A stretch of DNA of 64,000 nt from Polytrichum commune. Lineage: Eukaryota > Streptophyta > Polytrichopsida > Polytrichales > Polytrichaceae. The notes under the pieces were generated by a model, which saw only the letters and a list, made by a program, of their open reading frames with translations, ran no database searches and was not told where the DNA came from. The DNA lies in assembly GCA_950295325.1 (NCBI GenBank), contig OX485808.1:13270501-13334500 (forward strand), given 5' to 3'. A program made the translations under genes and the position numbers. Positions 1-52,225 of the stretch are shown piece after piece (the first letter of the stretch is position 1; every line of letters begins with the position of its first letter).

Positions 1-228
1 TCGTGGGCATCCAAAACGTGAGAAGATGTTCGTTTTAAGGAACTTAGCCACTGTCTCTTTATCATCACGTTTAGTGGCTTCAGCCTCAGCCCATTTAGTG
101 GCATAGTCTGTAGCAACTAAGATGTAACGATGACGTCCACTCTTACTAGGGGGGTTAATCGGACCAACGAAATCTATCCCCCATTTCTCAAAGGGTGCTA
201 ATGCTAGGATAGGATGCAATGGCATTGC
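1..228 (-). pseudogene. Ty3/gypsy integrase catalytic core, N-terminal part
   Basis: The minus strand encodes the start of a retroviral-type integrase core: the 'PFEKWGIDFVGP' motif, then 'YILVATDYATKWAEA' with the second catalytic-region aspartate, then a helix ending near FGCP at the window edge. The enzyme would insert the cDNA copy into chromosomal DNA in the nucleus. The segment is cut from its own zinc-finger half (about 1232-1400) by the insertion at 229-1231. The rest of the core, including the catalytic glutamate, lies outside the window. Confidence 0.9.
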
Positions 229-1231
229 TGATGTGTCCGTAGGTGTCGCGCACCTCTCCATGAGGAGTGCCCGAAACACCATGGGCACAAGGGGGACCCC
301 GGAGTGACACCCGGGACTTGTGGCGCCGTTGGTGAGAGGGCCCAAGTGATCCTAGTGTGGGTGAGGGCCCCGGGCGTTGGGAACGCCTCCCACCCACGAA
401 GACTAGGAGGCACAAGGGTAAGGCCATGAGCTATGCGTAGCTCATGGCGTGGTGATTCTAGAATGCTCAAGAACACCTCAATCGGAGGTGTGAGCTAGGA
501 GTTATGGCCATTTGAGTGGGGCGCTGTCCCGGGACAGCGCCCTGGTACAGCAGTGCCTGGGAGGGATTCCCGGGACTGCCAAGGTTCAAACAGGCATAAC
601 TTCCTCAAGACTTGCTCGAATGGAGCAAGTGAGGAGTCCATCGGCATCTACGTGAAGCGTAGATGAGGATGGAGCGGTTGGTTGTTATGATCAGACATCA
701 TACAAGGAAGTTATGATGGTCTGAAGCTGCTGGGGGGTTCTAGGCCCAGCAGCTAAAGGAAAATGTCCACTTGGCCCCAACTCTTGGTAGGGAGACAAGA
801 GGTTGGTTGACGGTGGGGTAGGGGCCCCGCGTGAAGTCCTAGAGGCTTATATGGGTGAGGTGGTGTGGCCTCACCCACCCGAGGCCGAACGGCACGGCCT
901 CCATTGGCATTGGCCTAATGTGAGGCCATAGTTGCCTAGTATGGTTCGGGTTGTTGTAGTGTTGCTCCGGCAACGCGATGATCAACATAAGATTGGACTT
1001 CCATGGATGGAAGTCCACATCTAAGGATTGGTTACCGATTAAAGGGGTTGGTTAGCAATTGAAGGGGTGAGTCCCGAAAGCAAAGTAGGAGGGTTGGTTC
1101 CCCTCCTATGAACTATAAGGTCCGGGGTGAGAGGAGCTAACCATTAGCATGGCGGTATGCGAATGGTTAGCGCTCGTAACCTTTGCTAGGAAATGAAAAT
1201 TGGCAAGATGGTCAAGGAGGGCTAGCAAGGG
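229..1231. mobile_element. Hairpin-array insertion of unknown class inside the gypsy integrase
   Basis: A 1003-bp block interrupts the integrase frame and is flanked by TTGC at 225-228 and 1232-1235. Removing it with one TTGC copy leaves the integrase frame open and colinear, so the boundaries are well supported. It begins TGATGTG and ends CAAGGG, has no terminal inverted or long terminal repeats, and no convincing ORF. It contains about twenty consecutive stem-loops, for example 423-433/438-448 (11-bp perfect stem, 4-nt loop), a 24-bp perfect palindrome at 519-542, 725-734/745-754, 994-1004/1007-1017 and 1136-1145/1162-1171. It is richer in G+C than the host element. The last stem pairs 1180-1189 with 1222-1231, ending exactly at the insertion boundary. 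I recognise no known family. A retrozyme-like or other structured-RNA retroelement is one idea, because plant retrozymes also make 4-bp target duplications. Confidence 0.85.
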
Positions 1232-2660
1232 TTGCGACAGTAGGTTTACCAACTCGTTGACATGCGTCACACTGTCTTGCATAGGTGACACAGTCATTGA
1301 ACAAGGTGGGCCACCAATACCCTGTCTATAAGACTTTCCTAGCGGTGACATTACCCGCAAAATGGCCTCCTGCGGGGTCACTATGACATCCTTGTAAAAT
1401 TAAGGGTATTTCTGAACTCATAATGCACCGTCTCAATATACCATCCTTGCTTTTCTTATATAAGGTGTCGGTAATGATAGAATATGGAGTTGCTTTGAAT
1501 AACAAACGTTGTTGTTGTTTCTTAGAAAAGTCCAAGGGGAATGTGTTGGTTTGGAGATAATTAATTATCTCAGCATACTCGGGTGACACTTTCTCTATGA
1601 AAAACAAATTAGCATCCGGAAAAGAATCATCAATGGGTTCTGTTCCTAACGTATCACTCAACCTTGATAAGTGGTCTGCATTAGCATGACTCTTACCTGG
1701 TCGCACTTGAACAGTAAAATTAAACTCTTGCAACAATAAGACCCATCTAGCTATTCTTCCACTCAGCTGGGGTTTGTTTATCATATACTTTAGGGCGTCG
1801 TGGTCCACATGGAATACGAACTTATACCCTAGTAGGTAATGTCTAAATTTTTGTACTGAGAAAATCATCCCTAAGGCTTCCCTTTCCGTAACTGTGTAAT
1901 TATGTTCCGCTTGAACTAGTTGACGACTAGCAAAGTAGATAGGATGGTCATGACCTTTCTCATCTTTTTGACTTAACACTGCACCAATGTCGACATTTGA
2001 CGCATCTACATACACCTCAAAATCCTTTTCCCAATTAGGGGCAACTAGAATGGGTGCAGATATTAACTTCTTTTTAAGCGTATTAAATGCTTGGGTGCAG
2101 GCCTCAGTCCAAATTGGTGGAGTGTCGGTTTTCTTTAGCAATTCGGTCAAGGGCATTGCAATGATGGAATAGCGAAAGATAAAACGATGATAATATCCGG
2201 CATGTCCCAAAAATCCCTTAACTTCAGTAACAGTAGTTGGTATGGGTAACGAAGTAATAATAGCAATTTTCTCAGGATCAGTGGCCACTCCTTGCTTAGA
2301 TATTATATGGCCAACTAATTTACCAAAGGGTACCAGAAACACAGACTTGGCAGTATTAATAGAAATTCCAACTGCCATACATTCATCAAAACATTCTTGT
2401 AGATGTTTGGCATGTCTCTCCAGAGTACTATATACTGCAAAATCATCTAGAAACACCTCCATCGTGCGATGAAGATATTTCCGAAAGGTGTTAATTCCTA
2501 ACCTGGAAAAAGTTCCAGGGGAATTACACATTCCAAACGGCATGCGAGCATATGCAAAAATGCCCCATGGTGTGGTAAAAGCAGTCAAAATCCGATGTGG
2601 TGGATATATGGAAATTTGATTATAGCCTGAAAACCCATCCATGAATGAATAGCAATCATA
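1232..2660 (-). pseudogene. Gypsy pol: RT C-terminal half, RNase H and integrase zinc finger
   Basis: The open frame 2642-1326 (438 residues) starts at the 'MDGFSGYNQI' motif of RT. It continues through 'MPFGMCNSP' and the active-site 'VFLDDF' near residues 64-69, which has F in place of the usual Y of YxDD. The RNase H domain starts around residue 210 (VYVDAS) and keeps its later acidic positions (TEREA, HVDHDAL). The histidine pair of the integrase HHCC finger is at the end of this frame. After a TAG stop at 1326-1328 the frame continues to about 1240 with the cysteine pair (CDAC). The TAG stands where a glutamine codon is usual, and the TGA at 2661-2663 separates this part from the RT N-terminus. 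Confidence 0.93.
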
Positions 2661-4901
2661 TCATGCCACTTCATCTAACATAGTGTTAGTGAATGGCAAG
2701 GGAAAATAGTCTTTCTTAATGACACTATTCAACTTCCGATAATCCACACATATACGGAGTTTGCCATTCTTTTTGGGTACTAAGACAATGGGTGATACCC
2801 ATTCACTATATGGGATAGGATAAATTATGCCCACTTCCAATAACTTGTCAACTTCCTCTTTAACCAATAGGGAATACTTTGGATTCATTCGATATTGCCT
2901 TTGACGGACAGGGGTAGTCCCTTCTTCCAATATGATTTTATGCTCACAAATCTCCGGGGGAACTCCTCTCAAATCCTTATACGTCCACGCAAAGACTTTA
3001 ATATTTCTCTTAAAAAACTCCTTCCAAAACTTCCACTCATCTTTGGTTATCTTCTCATATATCTTGATGATACGGGGTGTCTCATCATCACTCAAATCCA
3101 TATCTCTACATACATATTTGACCACATAATGCTTAGCAGGTTGATCAGACTCGAACATTGAGGATTCCCATTTTTCGGCCAAATCATCTTTAGTTGGTAC
3201 TTTAAGTGTGGTTTCCTCTCGTACATTATACACTGATTGTAACTTCCGTGCTTCATTGGGTCGTGAGGCATGGGTGGAGACCATATTAACTGGCACGGTA
3301 TTTTGCCATGCTAAGATGGCATCATCCGAATCTCCATCCCCAAGCGCACAAAAATACTCTCCCATTCCCACAGGAGTGTATTTAAATGGCTTATCATTCA
3401 CACGGTATATGGATTCACTCGTAGTAGTTTCTTTCTCAGTTTCATCACTCACATCCGTCGTGAATTCAGTCTCGTCATCTTGAGTCTCACCATGGTATTG
3501 GGTAGGAAACAAAGGTAGAATTATCTTCTTTGGACCCTTTCCTATTGTAAGTGTACCCTTCCCCCAATCTTCTTTGGCATGGGCATCTAGCAACCATGTT
3601 CGTCCAAGAAGGCCTGGATAGGATGGTACACCATCCATAGTCTTAAAAACAACATAATCCACCTTATACTCAATGTTAGCAATGAGGGTTGGAATTTGTT
3701 CCAAGACTCCCAATGGCTTAACTCGACTGCTATCTGCCATTTTTAAAATGATGGTAGTAGATACTACATTGGATATTCCCAATTCATTCATGGTATCAAC
3801 ATTCATCAAATTGACACTTGATCCAGTGTCAATTTGGAATCCCGGTATAAGAGCACCTCCTATAATGACATCAACTGTAGGAGCTCCAGGATCTCGACTC
3901 AAAGTAATATCATGTACGGCGGCGGGTCTCGACCTTCTACGTATCATGGATGAACTCAAGGAACTACGACATTGTGGTGCTATTGCCAACAATTGTTTCA
4001 TTGTGATTGTGGGTTGTATTGTATCCAGATCTTCTATGATATCATAAGATTTAAGATCCTTAGACAACATCATCGTCCGTGATGATCGGGCAGATGATGG
4101 CTTAATCTTAGGTCTTTGGTTTTTTATGGGTATCTTTGGGTAAGGATAAAAGTTATCTGTCGGTGACATAGGTAAACGGATTGAACTTGGGGGGTTAACC
4201 ACAACAGTAGGTAATGGAACTCTTGCATTGTCAGGAGTTACGACAGGTGGTAAATTTGTCGATGGTAAATTAGGTTCCACTGTGGGTTTATCCTTTGGGT
4301 CTCTCATCAAAGGAGCTTGTGAATATTCCGAAAAACTAGTTCCATCATCACTATGTTGTTTATTAAACCTCTTAGTACTAGATCCTTCTCGTTGTATGGC
4401 GGGTTTCTTGTGGGATCTAGTAGTGACAGCGTTGACGTGTTCTTCCATTCGCTCAATTTTTGACAACTGTACCCTATGCACATTACGATCTTGTCCCTCA
4501 TCTTCTTGTATAGTCACATGCTTACTCTTTTTCCAATCTCTCTCAGAAGGTGGACCTTCCTTCTTCTGTTGGGTACACTCAACTGTAGGATGTCCTGCTT
4601 CTTTACAGTTCCCACATAATGGGATATATTGTTGAAATTTTCTAGGGTTGGGGCAATCTCCTGCATAATGACCTATCTCTCCCCATCGGAAACATACTAC
4701 AAACTGGTTGGGCATTGGTGTCTTATAATTTTGGGTTCGGGGGTTATATGGAGGACCCCTCCAATTGGGTGGTTGGTTAACTTCACCCCAACTTGGTCGA
4801 TTCCCAAAATTTAGAGGCACCGGCCTACGGTTGAAATTCTTTTTGGGATTGTAACTTGCATTAGGCCCACTATCCATGTGCTCTTGTTGCCAAGGTCGTG
4901 A
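2661..4901 (-). pseudogene. Gypsy gag C-terminus, protease and RT N-terminal half
   Basis: The open frame 4877-2661 is 738 residues. Two CCHC-type knuckles lie near residues 62-102. The first has tryptophan where the second cysteine belongs (CFRW...H...C), so it is damaged; the second (CGNC...GH...C) is intact. The aspartic protease follows with the motif IDTGSS near residue 350 and a later LLGRTWL block. RT begins about residue 640, with the conserved 'SPIVLVPKKNGKLRICVDYRKLN' region at its end. The frame stops at TGA 2661-2663 just before the next RT motif, and the same frame stays open beyond it. A TAG at 4902-4904 interrupts the same frame upstream. Confidence 0.93.
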
Positions 4902-6385
4902 CTAGTTAGTTTCTACCTGGTGAACAACTCGACTCTTAGACAAATTCCAACACTCATTTACCGAATGGTTCCCTCCACAAAAGGTGCATTTAACTCTCAG
5001 CCCTTTTGGTGAGGGGCACTCATTGGATAAATGACCATGTCCCTTACAATTATTACACCAAATATTAGTTCTTTCCTCAGTCGGTTGTGGTCGTTTATTA
5101 GCTCCTCTGGTTATTTTGACTTCCAAGTTTGCTAATTTCTTAGTAATGTCCATAAGGGCTAATTCTTGTGGAGTGGATTGAACAATTGGTGGAGGCTTTT
5201 GTATGACCTTAGGTGGTGCAAACAAATCTGCACTCGGGTGTTTGAATTGTGTGGCGTCAACCATGGGTTTAGCGCCCGGATATGTCAGTGATTGTCCTGG
5301 TAAAACTGGATGATAGGCTTGGTCCTTCCTAGGTTGCTCATAAAGGTCATAATTGTAGGTATCGAAAGTATATCGATCCTCAACACGAGACTCCTCCCAA
5401 GCCTTTGCCAATGCAAACGCATCCTCTCTGGTGGCTGGGGTGCGTTCTCTCACATAGAGTTTCAACTCAAAGGGGTATAGTCCTCCTATGAAGATATTCC
5501 TCAAGAAATTATTTGGGATCTGATGAGCTCCCATTCTCAGTAGGATGTCACTCATTCTCCCCCAATAATTATCAACAGTTTCATTTGTACCCATACGAAT
5601 GGTTCTCAATCTTTCCATTAGACTGTTCTCAAACCCTAAAGGTCTAAAGTATACAAGAAATGCATCTTTAAGGGCATCCCAGTCAGCAAATGGTGTTTGA
5701 TGGGAAAATCACAAGAACGCATTTTCTTGCAGGGTGGCGGCAAATGCTTCCATCATCTTATCATGTGGAACACTGTTTGCGGCACACACAATTTCAAATT
5801 TTCTGACATGGACATCAGGGTCTATTCCTAGTCTACCCTGAAAATAGGGTAAATTCACTACACTATTGATTCTAGGGGGATTGGCTGCCATATTGAGCAG
5901 TGGTACTACAGGTTGTAGTTGTACTACGGGTTGTAAGGAAGGAGGTATTAATTGTGCTACGGGTACTGATGGTGTGTAAGGTGTAAACAATGGGTTGCCT
6001 TGCACATTGGTGTAAACCGTTGTGTCAAGCACAAGAGATGGTGTACGTTCATAGGCAGTAGCCCACAACGGTGGAGTAGGTGAACTGGTGCGAGGTGAAT
6101 TATCAGTAAATAAAACTTTCGGTGATAAGAAATCCCTCTCAGCACTTGTTGTAGGTTTATTTACTGGTGTCTTAAAAATATCTCCTGGGATACTACCAGA
6201 ACCCTCTCTTACTTCCTCTAAGAATGGCTTAACCCAACTTTGTCTTCTATCATGTGTTTGTTTTCTATACTCTCTGGCTGCCGCTCTATCTTCTCTAGCT
6301 TTATCACTGGCCGCCTTCCTTACGGATGCAGATTGAGAATGAGATTTTTCATGTGTGGATTCCAGTTTGACTGCCTCTCCCTAAC
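4902..6385 (-). pseudogene. Gypsy gag (capsid region and zinc knuckles)
   Basis: One minus-strand frame runs from about 6385 to 4902 with one internal TGA at 5709-5711. The upstream half holds a basic/acidic stretch and then the retrotransposon-gag start ('NLPYFQGRLGIDPDVHVRKFE'). The downstream half, 5618-4902, has the rest of the capsid-like helices and ends with a CCHC knuckle (CNNCKGHGHLSNEC) and a second variant finger (CTFCGGNHSVNEC). The stop at 5709 sits where gag proteins usually have a tryptophan before phenylalanine, so it looks like a TGG-to-TGA change. Gag would form the cytoplasmic particle that packages element RNA. Confidence 0.88.
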
Positions 6386-9121: not shown

Positions 9122-10854
9122 CTAAAGCCTATTGCCAAACACTAGGAGACTATGCCTGATTTCTAACTCTGAAAATAGCCTGCCTACCTTCTGCTTCGCC
9201 TCCTCCTTGAGCTGACGAAGGAGGAGAAGTCGGTTAGGGATTGTAACCGATTCTTGACGGCGATAGCCCTTCGATGACGCTGCGGATGGCATTCCAAGAT
9301 CATTAGCCAGATGAATGTCATCACTTTTCAAAAAGTGGCCCACTTCCGGCAAGCGATAGCCAAAAATTGGTCTCACACCGCCATACAAACCTCTTCCTCA
9401 TCCCCTAGGGAGATGGGGTTGCTCATTATCGGTTCGATAATGAGCCTATACAGGCCTTCGTCTCCCGCATACGCGGTGGCAAGGAGGCTCTGCCCTTGCC
9501 TGAGCTCCAGGACCTCCTCATCGATACCCACCGCGGTGGATACGTGGATTTGGTTGGCTCGTAGGTCTTGATAACTGATCAGGTTTCGAGGAGCCTCCGG
9601 GGCATACATAGCCCTTTCACAAACGAGGGGGAATCCCCCGGGCAGACCAAGAACTGCCCGGCCCTCCCGGAATTTAAACTTCCGGCTTCCGGCCATTATA
9701 ACAATGTTACAATGCTGCCAGGATGACTTGTTATTTGAGAAATTAAAGAATTTAGGATTCATGAGAATTGTGTGTATGGAAGCACTATCTAATAGTGCTT
9801 CGTTAGACTCAGATTCTGATTTCCCTCTCATGGCCATAAAATTCTCAACATCCAGGGTATTATCTTGTTGTATATCAATGTTATAATTCTCCCTGGATTG
9901 GTTTTTGAGCCTCTGAACCTCCAAGTTGTATAACTCAATTACATATGCAGATGCTCTACATTTCTTAGCATAATGCCCTTTGCGGCCATACTTGTGGCAA
10001 GTGCCCTTAGAAGGTTTAGAGGGTGGGTGCTTAGGTTGCTGGGGTGTCCCCCGTGAGACATACCTCTTAGGCTTGGATGTAAACCGCTTCGTGAACCCCT
10101 TAGGCGGTCTCCTCGGGGCTTCGGTCGCATGTGCCTCCGGTGGGGTGGCTGGAAGCTCCCTCGCCACTGGAATCGCCACGTGCACCTCCCGAGCAGGTCT
10201 TGATTCAGCATTCTTCAATAAGAGTTGCTGATGCTTCTCTGCAAGCAGCAGATGGGCCATGAGCTGTGAGTGTTGTGTGAACCTCATATTTCTATATTGT
10301 TGGGACAATATAGAGGTAGCAGGAGGAAATGTGGACAAAGTTTTCTCGATGAGCTCATTTTCGGTGATGGTTTCACCGCACAATCGCAATGTAGCAACGA
10401 TCCGATGCAACTCGGAGTTAAATGTAACGAAATCGGGAAAGTCTAAGACCCTTAGGTTAATCCAATCACTTCTGGCTTGAGGCAGAAATAAGGTCTGTTG
10501 GTGGTCAAATCTTTCCTTGAGTTGTGTCCATAACCTAGCTGGATCGGTAACCTGTATGTATTGTAATCGTAAGGAATGATCCAGATGTCGCCTAAGTATG
10601 ACTAAGGCTTGTGATTTGTATACATCAGATACCTCTTCTGCTGGGTTAGTTTCTAGGCAGATACCTAGTTCCTCTGCCGCTAGGTATTGTTTAGCGTCGT
10701 TAACCCATTCAAGAAAATTTGAACCATTAGAACTTAATGGTTCGAAGCAAAGCAACCTGGACCCTGTAGATGTAAATGATGATGATGATGATGGTCCTGG
10801 TTGAGTAGCCATAACTACTGGTTCAGTTTTCTTAAGTCTGGACTTTGACGCCAT
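9122..10854 (-). pseudogene. Copia gag-protease, truncated
   Basis: The frame 10854-9373 encodes 493 residues. Residues about 35-190 match the copia gag (UBN2) pattern, with 'FLEWVNDAKQYLAAEE' and 'LWTQLKERFDHQ'. A CCHC knuckle at about 285-300 reads CHKYGRKGHYAKKC, with tyrosine in place of the second cysteine. The aspartic protease region has 'EALLDSASIHTI', where serine follows the aspartate instead of the common DSGAS/T. The frame stops at 9373; a further frame 9388-9122 on the same strand continues but matches nothing clear. A substrate-binding gag and a maturation protease are the expected roles. The altered knuckle and the loss of integrase and RT make it inactive. Confidence 0.88.
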
Positions 10855-18100: not shown

Positions 18101-21100
18101 ATGAACGATCTTCTGTCAAGATCGTTTGGGCGGAATCGAAACTATGTGGATCTCAAGAAGGACACCAACAGGGGGGACATTGAGCTGGGGGACACAACCG
18201 CGGGGGGCAGTGCGGAAGGCGAAGTTGACATGACCCGATTCTTCGATGAAGTGGGAGTGATCAAGAACGAGATGGAGCAAATCAAGCAATTCCTCGCAAA
18301 AGTGCAAGAAGCTCACGAGGAGACCAAGACGGTGCACAGGGCACAGGCCATGAAATCATTGCGGTCTCGTATGGATGCCGACATCTCCCAGGTCACCAAA
18401 CTTGCAAAGTCCATTAAGCTGAAGCTGGAGGAGCTGGACAAAGCCAACAGTGCAAATAGGAGGGTACGAGGATGTGAGGAGGGAACGCCCACTGACCGAA
18501 CTCGGACATCCATCACCAGCACTTTGAGGAAGAAGCTCAAAGACCTCATGGGGGAGTTTCAGATCCTCAGACAGAAAATCATGGGCGAGTACAAGGAAAC
18601 GGTGGAACGCAGGTATGTGCCACCTTAACAAAAATTGTGGGAAATGGAACTTTGTAGCACTGAGTGCATTTTTGTGATTGTTATGATCCGTAGGAAATCT
18701 CAAAATGCAGGTGAGCAGCGGTAAATGTCTTGTCAGTGTTGATACATATCCTTTTTCAGGGCTTAAGGTCTTGTCTGTGCTAATTCAACATTCAGATATT
18801 CAACTGTAATTTTCTCTTCTCAATCCTCCCGGCTCATTGCCACCATAACCTAATGTTTGGAGGATGCAACTTTGTAGCATTGAGTTTATTGTTATGATTG
18901 TTATGATTCATGGGCGATGACAGAATGCAAGTGAGCGGGGTTGACTGTTGAGTAAAGTGTTGATGGTGGCCTTTCTTGTCAGTGCTAACTCGAACGTTTA
19001 TCTATTCATCTGTAATTTCTCTTCCCAATCCTCCTTCCGGTTCATCGCCATCAAAACCTAAAAATTCTGGAGAATGCAATTTTGTAGCACTTTGTTCATT
19101 GTTATGATTGCTCTGATTCATAGGGCATCTCAGAATGCCAGTGAGCGGCCTTTACTGGCGAGTCGAGTGTTGATGCATGTCACTCAACTTTTAGGTATTC
19201 GTCTGTAATTTCTCTCCCCAATCCTGCTCCTGGGACATTGCCACCATAGCCTAAATATTTTGGAGAATGCAACTCTGTAGCACTGAGTTCATCGGTACGA
19301 TTCTTGTGATTTATGTGCCATCTTAGAATGCAAGTGAGCGGGGCTTACTGTCAAGTCAATTGTTGATACATATTCTTCTTCAGGGTTTGATGTCTTGTTA
19401 GTGCTAACTTAACATTTAGCTATTCATCTGTAATTTCTCTCCTCAATCCTCCCGGATCATTGCCACCATAACCTAACAGTTCTGAAGAATGCAACTTTGT
19501 AGTGAGTGCATTGATGTGATTGTTATGAGTTTTAGGGCATCTCAGAATGCAAGTGAGAGGCGTTTACTGTCGAGTCAGTGTCGATAAGTATCCTTTAGGT
19601 TTAATGTCTTGTCAGTGCTAAGTCAACATGTAGCTATTCATCTGTGACTTCTCTTCCCAATCCTCCCTCATTGCCACAGCCTAAAAATTCTATAGAATAC
19701 AACTTTGTGGTGAGTGCATTATGAATCATCGGCCATCTCAGTGACATGTGAGCAGCGTTGAATGTCGAGTCAGTGTTGATGCATACCCTTGAGGATTTAA
19801 TGGTTTTTCAGTACTGATCCACACCTAGCGACTTATTCATTCAACGTTTGATTCGACACATATTTCCACCTTGTAGGCTTGCAGCTATAAAATGTAAAAA
19901 GAAAAGATTAGAACTGCAACCCTCTGTCTTGGTAGGCATCAATCCAGTGATCTAGTTTGATGTGATTGAATGAATGTGAAATCGGTGTTAATATATGAAT
20001 CTAGAGGTTTGTGATGGCGCTATCAGTTAGACTATCTAGGATGGGAGTCATCAGTAGTAGCAAATAAACCTTGTGTCCAACATAAAAGAGCAGTGTTAAA
20101 TCTTCCCAGCCACATTTGTCGAATAACGCTCAATTCTTTACGCTGTGTGTTATACCTCTTGCAATGATCTACACAGCTTATTTTGAAGATGTTAAGAAGC
20201 TTCGACTTTGTATCTAGTGTTTGCATCATTCACGACTTTGCGAATCTGATATAAGTACCTGTGAAACGATCGTGTGTGTAATATGTAGTTTCTACTTGAT
20301 GCTAAGGCATTATAGTGAAAACTTAACCTACTCGACCGTGTCAGAGCCATGTTCATAACTGCTAGGGGTAATGGTTGCCGAGGTTTTTAAATTCATTCGT
20401 TTTAGAGCATCCCTTATGGTCACTGGAAATAAATCCTCTCAATAATCGGCCGCTTCCTGGGTTTTTGGTGGGACAAGGCCGGGTGCTCATCCCACCCACA
20501 CAGCCCAAACTTTTTTCATATCCTTACTGCCCACTTTAGCCTCCTCCGCCCTCAAGAATTGATGGTTGGAGTTCAGAGGGTTATGTCATTATGAAGACTT
20601 ATGAAGACATTGTATGTGACATGAGCATATGTGGCAACGCCCTGAAATAATTTGAAAACGGATTATTGAGAGAATCATTTTTTAGTGACCAGTAGGAGTT
20701 ACTTATAATTCTGTGATGGCATTCTCTGATGGCTATTTTCTTATCACTAAGGTAGACATACCCCCATCCAACAACGCTGTCAATTGTATGGCAATGGTAC
20801 ATAGTGTGGTTTTAGGTTCAGAGTTTGTTTGGGCTATGTTTCTTTACGCATGTGTGGTTGTACTGAGAATTTCCTTTATTTTTTCGGCTCTGTGACATCG
20901 CCAATCTATAACCTGGTCCAGCTTTACATTGTCAGAGGTTTTGATTCAGTGCATTGTTGTCTTGCAGGTACTACACAGTGACTGGACAACATGCAGATGA
21001 AGAAACAATTGAATCTATTATCGAGACAGGAAATAGTGAAACATTTCTACAAAAAGCCATCCAGGAGCAAGGGCGGGGCCAAGTCCTGGAGACGATCCGA

Positions 21101-31946: not shown

Positions 31947-32831
31947 CTAATCGTATTCAGGGACAAGCTGGGAGATTTTGCCCTCCTCGGCAGCAAGGCG
32001 CTGCTCCGTAACCCGTAACCATATGCACACAGCGCTGAAACTCAGTATCAAGCTGAGAAAACCACTACCAAGACCAATTCCTACGATGGCGAGGATGGAG
32101 AGGTTATGGGACTTGGGCTCAGGAATAGGGTAACCATACAGTCCTGAGTTCCCTTCGAACGACGAGATGTTGAACCTTGGTGCTCCAGTCGACGTGTTTG
32201 CAAGGCCTGTTGGAATAGGCCCGTCCAGATTGTTGTATGAAACATCAAAGATGCTGAGCTTTGACAGGGTGGTGAGCGCCACTGGAATAGTCCCTGTGAG
32301 CTGGTTGTATTGAAGGTCAAGCTCATGCAGGTAGGTGCAGTTTGCAAGCTGTGTTGGAATCTCACCTGTGAGATGGTTGTGGCTCAAATTGATGCTCATC
32401 AGGTAAGGAAGCATCCCAAGTCCCTGTGGGATTGAACCTGACAGCAAGTTTTGCGATAGGTCGAGGGTGAGCAGATTCGCACACAACGACAGGTTGGGTG
32501 AAATGGTTCCTGTGAGCCCATAGTTGCTTAAGTTCAGAGTCACCACACGACTACTGCTACAACTGATTCCAGCATACCTCTGTTCCTGGCCTGTCACATT
32601 GCAGGGAAACGCGGCATCCGTCCAGTTACTTAATAGCTGTGGATCTATGCTTGAGTTCACCTGCGCTTGAAATGCCTGTAAGCACGTAATATCATCCTTG
32701 CTCGGCTGTGCAAAAGTAGTTTTCCCCAAAATGAAGATGATTACCATCACCAGAGCAGATATGGAGACATGATGAAACACCAATCTGGTGCTAGCTAACA
32801 CTGGGCAACCAATACCACCATGCTGCTTCAT
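31947..32831 (-). CDS. RLP44: Receptor-like protein, RLP44-like (LRR, one TM, no kinase)
   Basis: Single exon, 294 residues. A hydrophobic signal segment lies at about 23-41; the start at 32831 gives a 22-residue lead, and M29 is an alternative. The LRR N-cap with paired cysteines is at about 50-91. Five plant-type LRRs cover about 95-212 (LDLSxNxLSGxIP pattern). A short linker contains [16 protein letters not shown] helix with GIGLGSG lies at about 245-270, then a 24-residue tail (EEGKISQ...PEY). The TM and tail wording closely follows Arabidopsis RLP44 (about 274 residues). That protein sits in the plasma membrane, senses pectin/wall state, and links to BRI1/BAK1 brassinosteroid and PSKR1 signalling. 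Six N-glycosylation sequons are visible. There is no kinase, as expected for the family. Orthology rests on my recall of the family; a close RLP paralogue is the alternative. Confidence 0.92.
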
Positions 32832-35689: not shown

Positions 35690-36655
35690 TATGTAGGTAA
35701 GGAAGGAAGGAAGGGTGAGTTTCCATGGAGGCCACTCGCCCACTAGATGCTACATAGTAGTGGGTTGGAGGTGTTCTCATGTACATAAAGCACACAGCCG
35801 CCAACCGACCACATTCTAGTGGCCTATTAGACTGTGGAGGGCCGTGGACACGCGCCGCCAAATTTTCATGCGCCCGCTAAAGCATTTTTTTCTTAACCTA
35901 CAGTTGTCGGTCACCGAAGGATTTGAAGATTGATGGTCTACAACTCCACCCTTGATACCCTAGTAGGTGGGTCTGGATGTGAGGAGATCTTAGTAGCTAG
36001 GTGGCATTATGGGTTTATGTGGGTAAGGAAGGGTGAGTTTCCATGAAGGTTGCTCGCCCACTAGATTCTAGATAGTAGTGGGTTGGGGTGTACTCATGTA
36101 CATAAAGCACACAACCGTCAACCGATCACATTTTGGTGGCCTATTAGAGTGTGGAGGGCCGTGGGCACGCGCCGCCAGACTTCAATGCACTCACTAAAGC
36201 CTTTTTTTTTTTTTTACCTACAGTTGTCGCTCATCGAAGGATTTGAAGATCGATGGTCTACAACTCCACCCTTGATACCCTAGTATGTGGGTCTGGATGT
36301 GAGGAGATCGTAGTAGCTAGGTGGCACTATGGGTTTATGTAGGTAAGGAAGGGTGAGTTTCCATGGAGGCCGCTTGCCCACTAGATTCTAGATAGTAGTG
36401 GGGTGGAGGTGTTCTCGTGTACATAAAGCACAAAGTTGCCAACTAACAACATTTTGGTGGCCTATTAGAATGTGGAAGGCCATGGACACGCATCACTAGA
36501 CTTCCATGCACCCACTAAAGCATTCTTTTTTAACCTACAACTGCCAATCACCAAATGATTTGAAGATCGATGGTCTACAACTCCATCCTTGATACGCTAG
36601 AGAAGCAAGCTAGTAGGTGGGCCCGGGGGTGAGGAGATCATAGTAGCTAGTTGGC
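35690..36655 (+). repeat. Tandem array, three units of about 319 bp
   Basis: GGGTGAGTTTCCATG begins at 35713, 36031 and 36351, periods of 318 and 320 bp. Each unit continues CTCGCCCACTAGAT..., GTACATAAAGCACA, GTGGCCTATTAGA, GGACACGCGCCGCC, then TTTGAAGATCGATGGTCTACAACTCCA and GGGTTTATGT. Units are about 85-90% alike by eye. A reversed fragment of the unit start follows at 36710-36760. Confidence 0.9.
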
Positions 36656-50964: not shown

Positions 50965-51880
50965 GGGCCACTTCACACACGAATGACCAGTCTAAAGGCC
51001 CGTGACCATTGCATTCTAAGATTTATCATTGGTCGAAAAGGCTGAGACCATCCAAGTTCACTTCACACTAGAAGGTGAACGCCTAAGGGCCCAAAGAAAT
51101 TGTCATGAATGAAAAGTCAACATGGATTCCAACATGGCACACTATCAATAAAGTTTCATAGTTTGTTGAAATTTGCGTCAAACCCACCCCCAAGAGGTAG
51201 GCTTGACGCAAATTCCAACATACCGCATCAATTTCTACACAAATCGGCTTTCCCAATTCTCATGGTACAACCTTTGGATGAGAGTCAAGGGCCCTCGTAA
51301 CTAGAGTAAATGCACTCGTAACCGATCGCTTAGAGATTTTGCGTCAAGTCTAGAGAAGTATAAGGCGGTGCAAAGTTTTCCCATGTAGGAAGATACAAAT
51401 GAGGAGGACTACAATTTATTTGTTGGTAATTTTATTCTTTAAATTGAAATTACTGTGGATTGTTGAAGCCAAAAGTTGGCCCAAACATATTACCAATGTT
51501 TAGAGTCTACCATAACTACTCACTCCTCCTCACTCTAGCACTCAAAACCATGACTCGTGTCATAACACTATTGATTCCAACATATTGAAATTAAATCCCA
51601 ACCTTATTAAAATTGTGTCCCACCATGATTGAAAATATGATATTATGTAGATTGATGATGGGGTCCTGATCGGGAATACATAACATTATTAAGCAGTGTA
51701 CTTTCGTTCATGTGGCCTTGAGAATATAATCATGGGATGCCACAACTACCTGCATTAACTACATTATTCCACGGTTATATTCTCAGGGCCCACATGAACA
51801 AACATACACTACTTAATAATGTTATGTAGGCACATCTAGTATACATAATCACGGACCTTGGCTCATGTGTGAAGTGGCCC
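50965..51880. mobile_element. Harbinger-type MITE, copy 2 (916 bp, with nested foldback)
   Basis: The ends GGGCCACTTCACACACGA... and ...ATGTGTGAAGTGGCCC are flanked by TTA at 50962-50964 and 51881-51883. The left 200 bp align with copy 1 (CCGTGACCATT, GGTCCAAGTTCACTTCACACTA-like blocks). The extra length includes a separate foldback at 51680-51828. Confidence 0.82.
51680..51828. mobile_element. Small foldback element nested in MITE copy 2
   Basis: Arms of about 50 bp face each other: CATAACATTATTAAG.AGTGTA ... GTTCATGTGG...GAGAATATAA at 51680-51729, and its complement at 51775-51828. A related right arm occurs at about 62365-62425 (TTATATTCTAAGGGCC ... AATAATGTTATGG). Confidence 0.75.
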
Positions 51881-51998
51881 TTACTTCATAATGGTGTTGA
51901 ACTACCACTATCTCTTGAAACCAATCAATGAGTGTAGCGGAAGGCTTGGAGTACCACATCCCTGTGTAAAATAAGAACTACTACATAGGTAAAGTCAG

Positions 51999-52225
51999 TG
52001 TCCGGGGTGTTTTTTGGGGCATAATCGGTCAAAATCTTAGTGTTTCAAAGTCCAACCGGTCACTTGGTTATGATCTTTCAGTTTTTGTTTATTGATCTGA
52101 GATATGTTCTTTAGAATCCCCTAAAATGATGGGTAATACCCCTAAGTCTTGAACTTTCAACTGCTTATTTCTCAAGCTCAACCGGTTCATCATCTATAAC
52201 TAGTGGTTGGTTCTCCCCGTTCATT
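51999..52225 (+). repeat. Dispersed repeat family E, copy 2
   Basis: TGTCCGGGGTGTTTTTTGGGGCATAATCGGTCAA... matches 27113-27335 throughout, with one intact AACCGGTT at 52180-52187. The right end (TTCTCCCCGTTCA) is worn. Confidence 0.7.

What the first reader, a model, noticed from the sequence alone, without database searches (positions are those of the whole stretch)
229..1231. A 1-kb array of about twenty consecutive hairpins, possibly an undescribed structured mobile element
Seen directly: stems at 241-245/251-255, 256-259/264-267, 351-363/391-407 with inner 373-378/382-387, 423-433/438-448, 473-479/485-491, 519-542 (24-bp palindrome), 551-554/575-578, 610-617/623-630, 637-652/658-673, 691-702/712-724, 725-734/745-754, 777-786/796-806, 853-860/869-876, 881-887/895-901, 911-916/923-928, 961-965/970-974, 994-1004/1007-1017, 1086-1093/1101-1108, 1136-1150/1157-1171 and 1180-1189/1222-1231. 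Perfect stems follow each other with little unpaired sequence between them. Nothing else in 64 kb looks like this, and the host element is full of mutations while these stems are clean. I know of no plant nuclear family built this way. A structured RNA that moves by reverse transcription is one inference.
Basis: partly seen in the sequence, partly recalled or inferred. Interest (0 to 1): 0.88.

Follow-up and report, generated by a model that had tools for sequence, protein, structure and literature searches.

The report
Hairpin-packed solo LTR in a moss
The run of hairpins is real, but it is a lone long terminal repeat left behind by an abundant moss retrotransposon; the odd part is that this repeat is folded along almost its whole length and seems to keep its folds as copies diverge.

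Summary
In detail: window 229-1250 folds about 12 SD below dinucleotide shuffles on each strand and has 9 perfect stems of 8 bp or more where 0.34 are expected. The true element is 244-1239 (996 bp): TGTCGC...GCGACA ends and a GTAGG duplication, inserted in a gypsy integrase whose frame is continuous across the empty site. It is a solo LTR: the same unit flanks ten fetched 5-8-kb elements with primer site, polypurine tract and 0-3 LTR mismatches, and 2,769 exact LTR starts exist in this 408-Mb moss genome. The ten elements (family A) lack the RT core; a relative B (LTR about 80% identical) with a 1,546-aa chromovirus frame is the likely protein donor. So 'undescribed structured mobile element' is only partly right: a known kind of element with an unusually folded LTR. 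Folding is kept as copies diverge, more than in other repeats of the window, but the interior shows a weaker version of this, and 5 of the 7 pairs with double changes rest on two near-identical B rows. Selection on the RNA is my preferred reading; hairpin-guided mutation is not excluded.

The parts
239..243 (.). left copy of the 5-bp target-site duplication GTAGG
244..1239 (+). solo LTR, 996 bp, A family; hairpin array along its whole length
   Evidence: genome copies align to 1-996 of this span; fold and shuffles
244..249 (+). 5' short inverted repeat TGTCGC of the LTR
1234..1239 (+). 3' short inverted repeat GCGACA of the LTR
1240..1244 (.). right copy of the duplication GTAGG
847..854 (+). 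TTATATGG, TATA-box candidate identical in the 28 aligned A and B copies; implies U3 about 244-880, R-U5 about 880-1239 (inference)
423..448 (+). perfect 11-bp stem, with a G-C to A-U double change in the two B rows (and an unpaired A-C in two A copies)
519..542 (+). 24-base perfect palindrome
610..630 (+). 8-bp stem with a C-G to U-A double change in three A copies, the window's among them
994..1017 (+). 11-bp stem; nine of its pairs (helix 35) are invariant in 28 copies
1178..1233 (+). stem 1178-1189/1222-1233 at the U5 end, beside the primer site in full elements; in B one pair has an A-U to G-C double change and one pair is broken
1..238 (-). interrupted Ty3/gypsy integrase of the host element, downstream part
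1245..5618 (-). upstream part of the integrase, then RT/RNase H (ORF 1326-2642) and two further ORFs (2661-4877 with a sub-cutoff aspartyl protease match; 4902-5618, no Pfam match) of the host element

Best explanation
The array is a solo LTR. A non-autonomous, RT-deleted family (A) of chromovirus descent, moved by proteins of an autonomous relative such as B, inserted into a gypsy element; recombination between its two LTRs then removed the middle. Shown: LTR identity, target duplication, paired LTRs elsewhere, PBS, PPT, missing RT core in ten elements, an open-framed relative. Inferred: that B-like proteins move A, and that recombination made this particular solo copy. The hairpins are part of the element's genomic RNA (R-U5 at its 5' end, U3-R at its 3' end), and I think most likely that their folding is kept by selection on that RNA, for packaging and reverse transcription in trans and/or stability against host RNA silencing. 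That functional step is inferred. The confidence below is for identity and trans mobilisation; for the functional step it is about 0.5.
For: Identity: TG...CA ends, 5-bp duplication, in-frame empty site; copies align to 1-996; ten elements with LTRs of 992-996 bp, 0-3 mismatches, TGGTATCAGAGC two bases after the 5' LTR and GGTGGGGGTGAG before the 3' LTR; 9 of 54 full-length LTR rows are solo with exact 5-bp duplications; 864 exact PPT|LTR junctions, 2,769 exact LTR starts. RT residues about 125-314 have no match in 9 of 10 elements, and the tenth has no RT match at all; B carries gag, protease, RT, RNase H, integrase, chromodomain. Structure kept: re-dealing each copy's real substitutions gives a mean fold weaker than the real one for 36 of 36 A copies (mean difference 21.9 kcal/mol) and 2 of 2 B copies, also within 60- and 30-column blocks for the 8 copies tried, one of them B; other repeat pairs of the window (7 pairs, 28 measures) give -5.6 +- 16 kcal/kb against -70.6 +- 29 for LTR thirds (12 measures). 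Double changes in 7 of 306 pairs against 1.9 +- 1.2 in 500 shuffles, none reaching 7. Fewer variants at paired sites: 99 in 406 against 229 in 567. Within strand-symmetric pairs C>T (gives G-U on the + RNA) 29/123, G>A (breaks it) 12/123, p 0.006.
Against: For the functional step: A and B interior segments, used as a control, also keep more folding than substitution shuffles predict (8 measures, -6 to -73 kcal/kb, against -55 and -80 for the LTR), so the effect is not peculiar to the LTR. Of 343 A pairs, 206 are unchanged in B, 72 gapped (B was cut to 891 bases there), 17 changed but paired and 48 changed and broken; only 74 pairs are shared by the two MFE folds. RNAalifold's covariation term gives no support (+1.08). 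Of the 7 pairs with double changes, 5 rest on the two B rows, which differ from each other at 4 columns, and 2 lie within A (one in one copy, one in three copies). Further pair types are not in excess (77 against 78.3), and partners slid by +2 also give 6 pairs with double changes. With a strict unpaired background the strand asymmetry is not significant (p 0.17; only 6 unpaired C sites). Both strands keep folding about equally in the 7 copies tried. No transcript or small-RNA data.
Confidence: 0.85

Rival explanations
1. The hairpins are made and kept by mutation, not selection: template switching or hairpin-guided correction during reverse transcription or DNA replication turns imperfect inverted repeats into perfect ones.
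For: Fold maintenance is similar on both strands (7 copies); BLAST of the element against the window found no recurring motif, as random correction would give; the non-coding interior of one A element (L037) is more structured than the coding B interior (mean MFE ratio 1.168 against 1.101).
Against: C>T exceeds G>A in paired sites, which strand-blind correction does not predict; single changes that leave a pair broken are common in stems (83 one-sided unpaired variant events against 40 to G-U and 6 double); I saw no clear loop inversion between A and B by eye.
Confidence: 0.25
2. The palindromes act as DNA: arrays of binding sites in the LTR promoter region, as proposed for maize Sirevirus LTRs.
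For: Palindromic motif clusters lie in the cis-regulatory region of Sirevirus LTRs according to passages of PMC5311732 and PMC10760457; folding is kept on both strands.
Against: No motif recurs: BLAST of the element against the window finds only its own inverted arms and weak hits; stems also fill the part after the TATA candidate; G-U tolerance favours RNA.
Confidence: 0.15
3. A free-standing structured RNA element (retrozyme-like or viroid-like) that was reverse transcribed into the site.
For: About 1 kb, highly folded, flanked by a duplication.
Against: The same unit is the LTR of full-length elements with PBS and PPT; no hammerhead or other Rfam ribozyme found.
Confidence: 0.02
4. Chance or base composition.
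For: The region is GC-rich (0.55).
Against: About 12 SD from dinucleotide shuffles; stems of 8 bp or more 26-fold in excess.
Confidence: 0.01

Closest known systems
Ty3/gypsy chromoviruses of plants, e.g. RLG1 of the moss Physcomitrium patens
   Same: Chromodomain integrase and gag-protease-RT-RNase H-integrase order in B, high copy number, moss host. RLG1's chromodomain and abundance: passages of PMC7466625.
   Different: The A elements examined have lost the RT core and carry hairpins along the whole LTR; I did not compare RLG1 LTR sequences.
Maize Sirevirus LTRs with palindrome clusters (Bousios et al. 2016; seen only as cited in passages of PMC5311732 and PMC10760457)
   Same: Palindromes in an LTR with strong predicted secondary structure.
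   Different: Sireviruses are Copia; there a palindrome motif is abundant (CACCGGACNNNGTCCGGTG) and the clusters lie in the regulatory region; here no motif recurs and stems cover the LTR.
LARD and TRIM non-autonomous LTR elements
   Different: A still has recognisable decayed gag, RNase H and integrase.
Retrozymes
   Same: Structured non-autonomous plant LTR elements with a tRNA-Met primer site (passages of PMC11722881).
   Different: No hammerhead ribozyme found; the elements are 5-8 kb, not 1-1.5 kb.
Genome-scale ordered RNA structure of RNA viruses (recalled; one search was a search listing only)
   Same: Excess folding energy spread over the RNA: LTR, and more weakly the interior.
   Different: Here in a plant LTR retrotransposon; not tested on whole transcripts.

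Membership tests
solo LTR of an LTR retrotransposon | TG...CA ends with short inverted repeat | tested here: met
   TGTCGC...GCGACA
solo LTR of an LTR retrotransposon | 4-6-bp target-site duplication | tested here: met
   GTAGG on both sides; empty site in frame
solo LTR of an LTR retrotransposon | same unit present as paired direct repeats around a PBS and PPT | tested here: met
   10 of 10 elements fetched as pairs; exact 5-bp duplication in 8 of 10, 4 of 5 bases in L031 and 4 shared bases in L039
Ty3/gypsy chromovirus (B, and A by descent); defining features recalled | RT before integrase, chromodomain at the integrase end | tested here: met
   B: RVT_1, RNase H, integrase core and Chromo PF00385 in that order; A (L037): decayed collinear remains including the chromodomain end
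Ty3/gypsy chromovirus (A as an autonomous member) | own reverse transcriptase | tested here: not met
   RT core unmatched in all 10 elements examined; no interior ORF above 165 aa in L033 and L037
retrozyme | hammerhead ribozyme in the LTR | tested here: not met
   no Rfam hit at gathering level in the window nor up to E 0.5 in L037, L043, L045; the four weak hits (E 3.3-4.3) are unrelated families
Sirevirus | Copia order, integrase before RT (recalled) | tested here: not met
   B has RT before integrase
LARD | non-coding, conserved, structured interior with trans mobilisation | tested here: inconclusive
   A interior is non-coding in effect and folds above background in L037, but is still recognisably gag-pol derived; trans mobilisation not tested
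structured RNA under selection | covariation in excess of relatedness | tested here: inconclusive
   7 pairs against 1.9 shuffled, but slide +2 gives 6, covariation term +1.08, and 5 of the 7 rest on two near-identical B rows

The most novel reading that the evidence does not exclude
The genomic RNA of this moss chromovirus family is under selection to be folded from end to end, most strongly in the LTR, and the non-autonomous A lineage, freed from coding, has become more folded than its coding relative B: a plant retrotransposon counterpart of genome-scale ordered RNA structure that helps a trans-mobilised parasite to be packaged or to escape RNA silencing.
Probability: 0.3. Interest if true: 0.7.

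Novelty: new variant of a known kind. Interest (0 to 1): 0.45.

Why it matters
If the folding is selected, a family that cannot make its own reverse transcriptase is a clean natural test of what the RNA itself must provide: with no reading frames to protect, what remains constrained is what packaging, reverse transcription or host silencing see. More than two thousand copies in one 408-Mb moss genome make that testable. If it is mutational, the same copies show how hairpins are built. As identification, it is ordinary: a solo LTR.

Tried and rejected
Rejected: known ribozymes, introns or other Rfam RNA (only chance-level hits); a tRNA gene (none); a gene (longest stop-free stretch in the element 83 codons); spliceosomal intron in the host's sense direction (none of the possible insertion phases begins with GT on that strand; read by eye); plasmid relatives (no match); viral contigs carrying the PPT|LTR junction (0). 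Seventeen bacterial contigs with the 18-base junction were judged chance matches by their number and titles and not studied.

Tried and found weaker than hoped: the substitution-shuffle test is not specific to the LTR, since interior segments show it too. The strand-asymmetry interaction is not significant with strictly unpaired sites. A-to-B comparison of single MFE folds shows more broken than kept changed pairs. Self-insertion into own LTRs: 3 of 28 sites, all in reverse orientation, two further sites showing only 27 bases of LTR end; too few, and no proper expectation. The 40 loci L045-L084 were picked by hand from the first 100 listed of 864 junctions, all on contig C1 (44 were prepared, 40 fetched), so they are no random genome sample. 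Of the 40, 36 A copies and 1 B copy (L063) entered the fold tests; L079 (no LTR match), L082 (match to the first 513 bases only) and L061 (interrupted) were dropped. The A1 alignment used 25 of those 36 A copies plus the window and two B copies. The first tile run timed out and was redone with 498-base tiles.

Full report
What was claimed.

The observation. It is real. Of 21 stem pairs parsed from the list, 15 are perfect, 1 has one G-U, 2 have one or two mismatches and 3 have a bulge. Perfect stems of 8 bp or more with loops of 2-30 number 9 against a mean of 0.34 in 200 dinucleotide shuffles (max 2); of 10 bp or more, 5 against 0.03. RNA folding of 229-1250 gives -482.6 kcal/mol on + against -378.2 +- 8.7 for 100 shuffles (lowest -401.8), and -420.5 against -309.4 +- 9.2 on -. 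Both strands are thus about 12 SD low. The + fold has 37 G-U pairs, the - fold 13, but shuffles of the + strand fold better too. Of the 200-base windows of the 64 kb (step 100) the seven lowest by summed strand energies lie here; of 150 tiles of 498 bases (126 others in the window, two in the element, 22 from relatives) the element's two rank 1 and 4.

What it is. The left flank carries GTAGG at 239-243 and the right flank GTAGG at 1240-1244; between them 244-1239 begins TGTCGC and ends GCGACA. Joining the flanks at one copy of GTAGG gives a gypsy integrase that reads across the junction on the minus strand (...CDACQRVGKPTDTSAMPLHPILALAPFEKWGIDFVGP..., with a stop further upstream). So a 996-bp unit with LTR-type ends was inserted into a gypsy element on the opposite strand.

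Copies. The genome (unnamed, 407.8 Mb, 64 contigs) answered with 46 matches from 3,922 first-look candidates, of which only 40 were scored. Full-length hits run over bases 1-996. Among 54 full-length LTR rows in 42 fetched loci, some copies appearing in two loci, 24 are 5' LTRs followed by the primer site, 20 are 3' LTRs preceded by GGTGGGGGTGAG, 9 are solo with exact 5-bp duplications including the window's, and 1 is unclassified. That last one, L018, has the same 12 bases on each side as the full element L031 about 11 kb away, and is best read as a solo form of the same insertion in a duplicated stretch (inference). Ten pairs are full elements of 5.1-8.1 kb with 0-3 mismatches between LTRs; 8 have an exact 5-bp duplication, L031 matches at 4 of 5 bases and L039 shares 4. 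There are 864 exact PPT|LTR junctions and 2,769 exact 26-base LTR starts, the two patterns not being equally strict. The primer site matches plant initiator tRNA-Met (recalled).

The family. Of 40 junction loci picked by hand on contig C1 from the first 100 listed, 36 gave complete A-type LTRs (91.9-95.4% to the window copy) and 1 a B type; three were partial, interrupted or unmatched. B (L043/L044) has an LTR of 941 bp about 80% identical to A and one 1,546-aa frame with gag, protease, RT, RNase H, integrase and chromodomain. In the A element L037 the interior is collinear with B but decayed. In nine of ten A elements RT matches stop at residue 117-124 of the 500-aa B piece and resume at 315-321; the tenth (L036) has no RT match. 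Pfam's RVT_1 spans 178-337 of that piece, so most of the RT domain is missing. The RNase H part is repeated in L037. A is therefore non-autonomous, yet near-identical LTR pairs show recent movement; B-like proteins acting in trans are the natural explanation (inference).

Is the folding kept? Four tests. (1) Each copy's substitutions relative to the window copy were re-dealt to sites of the same base and CG/CHG context: the real copy folds lower than the mean of 16 simulations in 36 of 36 A copies (mean difference -21.9 kcal/mol; in 9 of them 1 to 3 of the 16 simulations were as low) and in 2 of 2 B copies (z -6.5, -7.3). Copies share ancestry, so these are not independent. Re-dealing within 60- or 30-column blocks gave the same for the 8 copies tried, seven A and one B. 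(2) The same test on 7 other repeat pairs of the window gave -5.6 +- 16 kcal/kb (28 measures) against -70.6 +- 29 for LTR thirds (12 measures). But A/B interior segments gave -6 to -73 kcal/kb (8 measures), against -55 and -80 for the LTR. Hence the maintenance extends to the interior, more weakly. (3) In a 28-row alignment, 306 consensus pairs show double changes in 7 pairs against 1.9 +- 1.2 in 500 shuffles, none reaching 7, and 13 cells against 2.0. Against this: further pair types are not in excess (77 against 78.3) and partners slid by +2 also give 6 pairs; the RNAalifold covariation term is +1.08, no support; and 5 of the 7 pairs rest on the two B rows, which differ at 4 columns, leaving 2 within A (L060; window, L050 and L062). 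(4) Variants per site are fewer in strand-symmetric pairs (99 in 406) than elsewhere (229 in 567; A copies only, p 2e-4); in those pairs C>T is 29/123 and G>A 12/123 (p 0.006). With sites unpaired on both strands as background the contrast is not significant (p 0.17, 6 C sites). Comparing single folds of A and B, 206 of 343 A pairs are unchanged in B, 17 changed but paired, 48 changed and broken, 72 gapped.

Reading. Excess structure falls in the order A LTR (tile ratios, mean of strands, 1.32 and 1.26), B LTR (1.22), A interior (1.17, one element), B interior (1.10, one element), window background (1.04). I take the hairpins to be a property of the element's RNA. A TATA candidate (847-854) identical in the 28 rows would put the start near 880, so stems before it lie in the 3' end of the RNA and stems after it in the 5' end, ending in a U5 stem (1178-1189/1222-1233) beside the primer site that resembles the U5-IR loop of retroviruses mentioned in a passage of PMC3601003. 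Selection for packaging, reverse transcription or resistance to silencing fits the G-U tolerance and the double changes; hairpin-guided mutation fits the two-strand symmetry. I put the first at about 0.5 (lowered from 0.55) and the second at 0.25.

Comparison. Passages of two papers report palindrome clusters in Sirevirus LTRs with strong predicted structure and an excess of small RNAs (PMC5311732; PMC10760457); the latter also says that cis-regulatory regions of elements are often arrays of sometimes palindromic repeats. So hairpins in LTRs are known. What differs here is the lineage (chromovirus), the coverage (whole LTR), the lack of a recurring motif, and the RT-less family. I do not claim that this is absent from print; my searches were on an open-licence library.

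Verdict. A solo LTR of a known kind of element, with an unusually folded LTR whose maintenance is suggestive but not proven to be selection.

Noticed in passing
window 51538-52035: Second most structured 498-base tile of the 150 compared; contains a self-complementary stretch (51677-51828), probably a small inverted-repeat element.
   Followed up: no
window 9300-10300: Strongly folding stretch over the ORF 9373-10854, which has a weak, sub-cutoff Copia gag match.
   Followed up: no
L043/L044 (G000:C4:54081950-54088464): Chromovirus B with a single 1,546-aa frame; the 40 scored LTR matches to a B copy are listed at 100% identity, so B moved recently.
   Followed up: partly
L037 interior, bases 1801-2618 of the interior: RNase H part matched in overlapping partial repeats in an A element that lacks the RT core; similar rows in other A elements.
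   Followed up: partly
L028, L034, L038: A elements inserted into LTRs of their own family, all three in reverse orientation (3 of 28 insertion sites).
   Followed up: partly
L018 and L031: Solo LTR and full element about 11 kb apart with the same 12 flanking bases on both sides: probably a solo form of one insertion in a duplicated stretch.
   Followed up: no
G000:C1 about 2.28-2.61 Mb and 20.76-21.31 Mb: Dense clusters of PPT|LTR junctions, mixed strands, among the first 100 places listed; possibly heterochromatic or centromeric islands.
   Followed up: no
window 35707-36600 and 18769-19720: Tandem arrays with periods of 320 bp (2.8 copies) and 193-214 bp.
   Followed up: no
window 31947-32831 (-): Open-framed LRR protein of 294 aa; best named relatives are moss LRR proteins, one called receptor-like protein 44.
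   Followed up: partly
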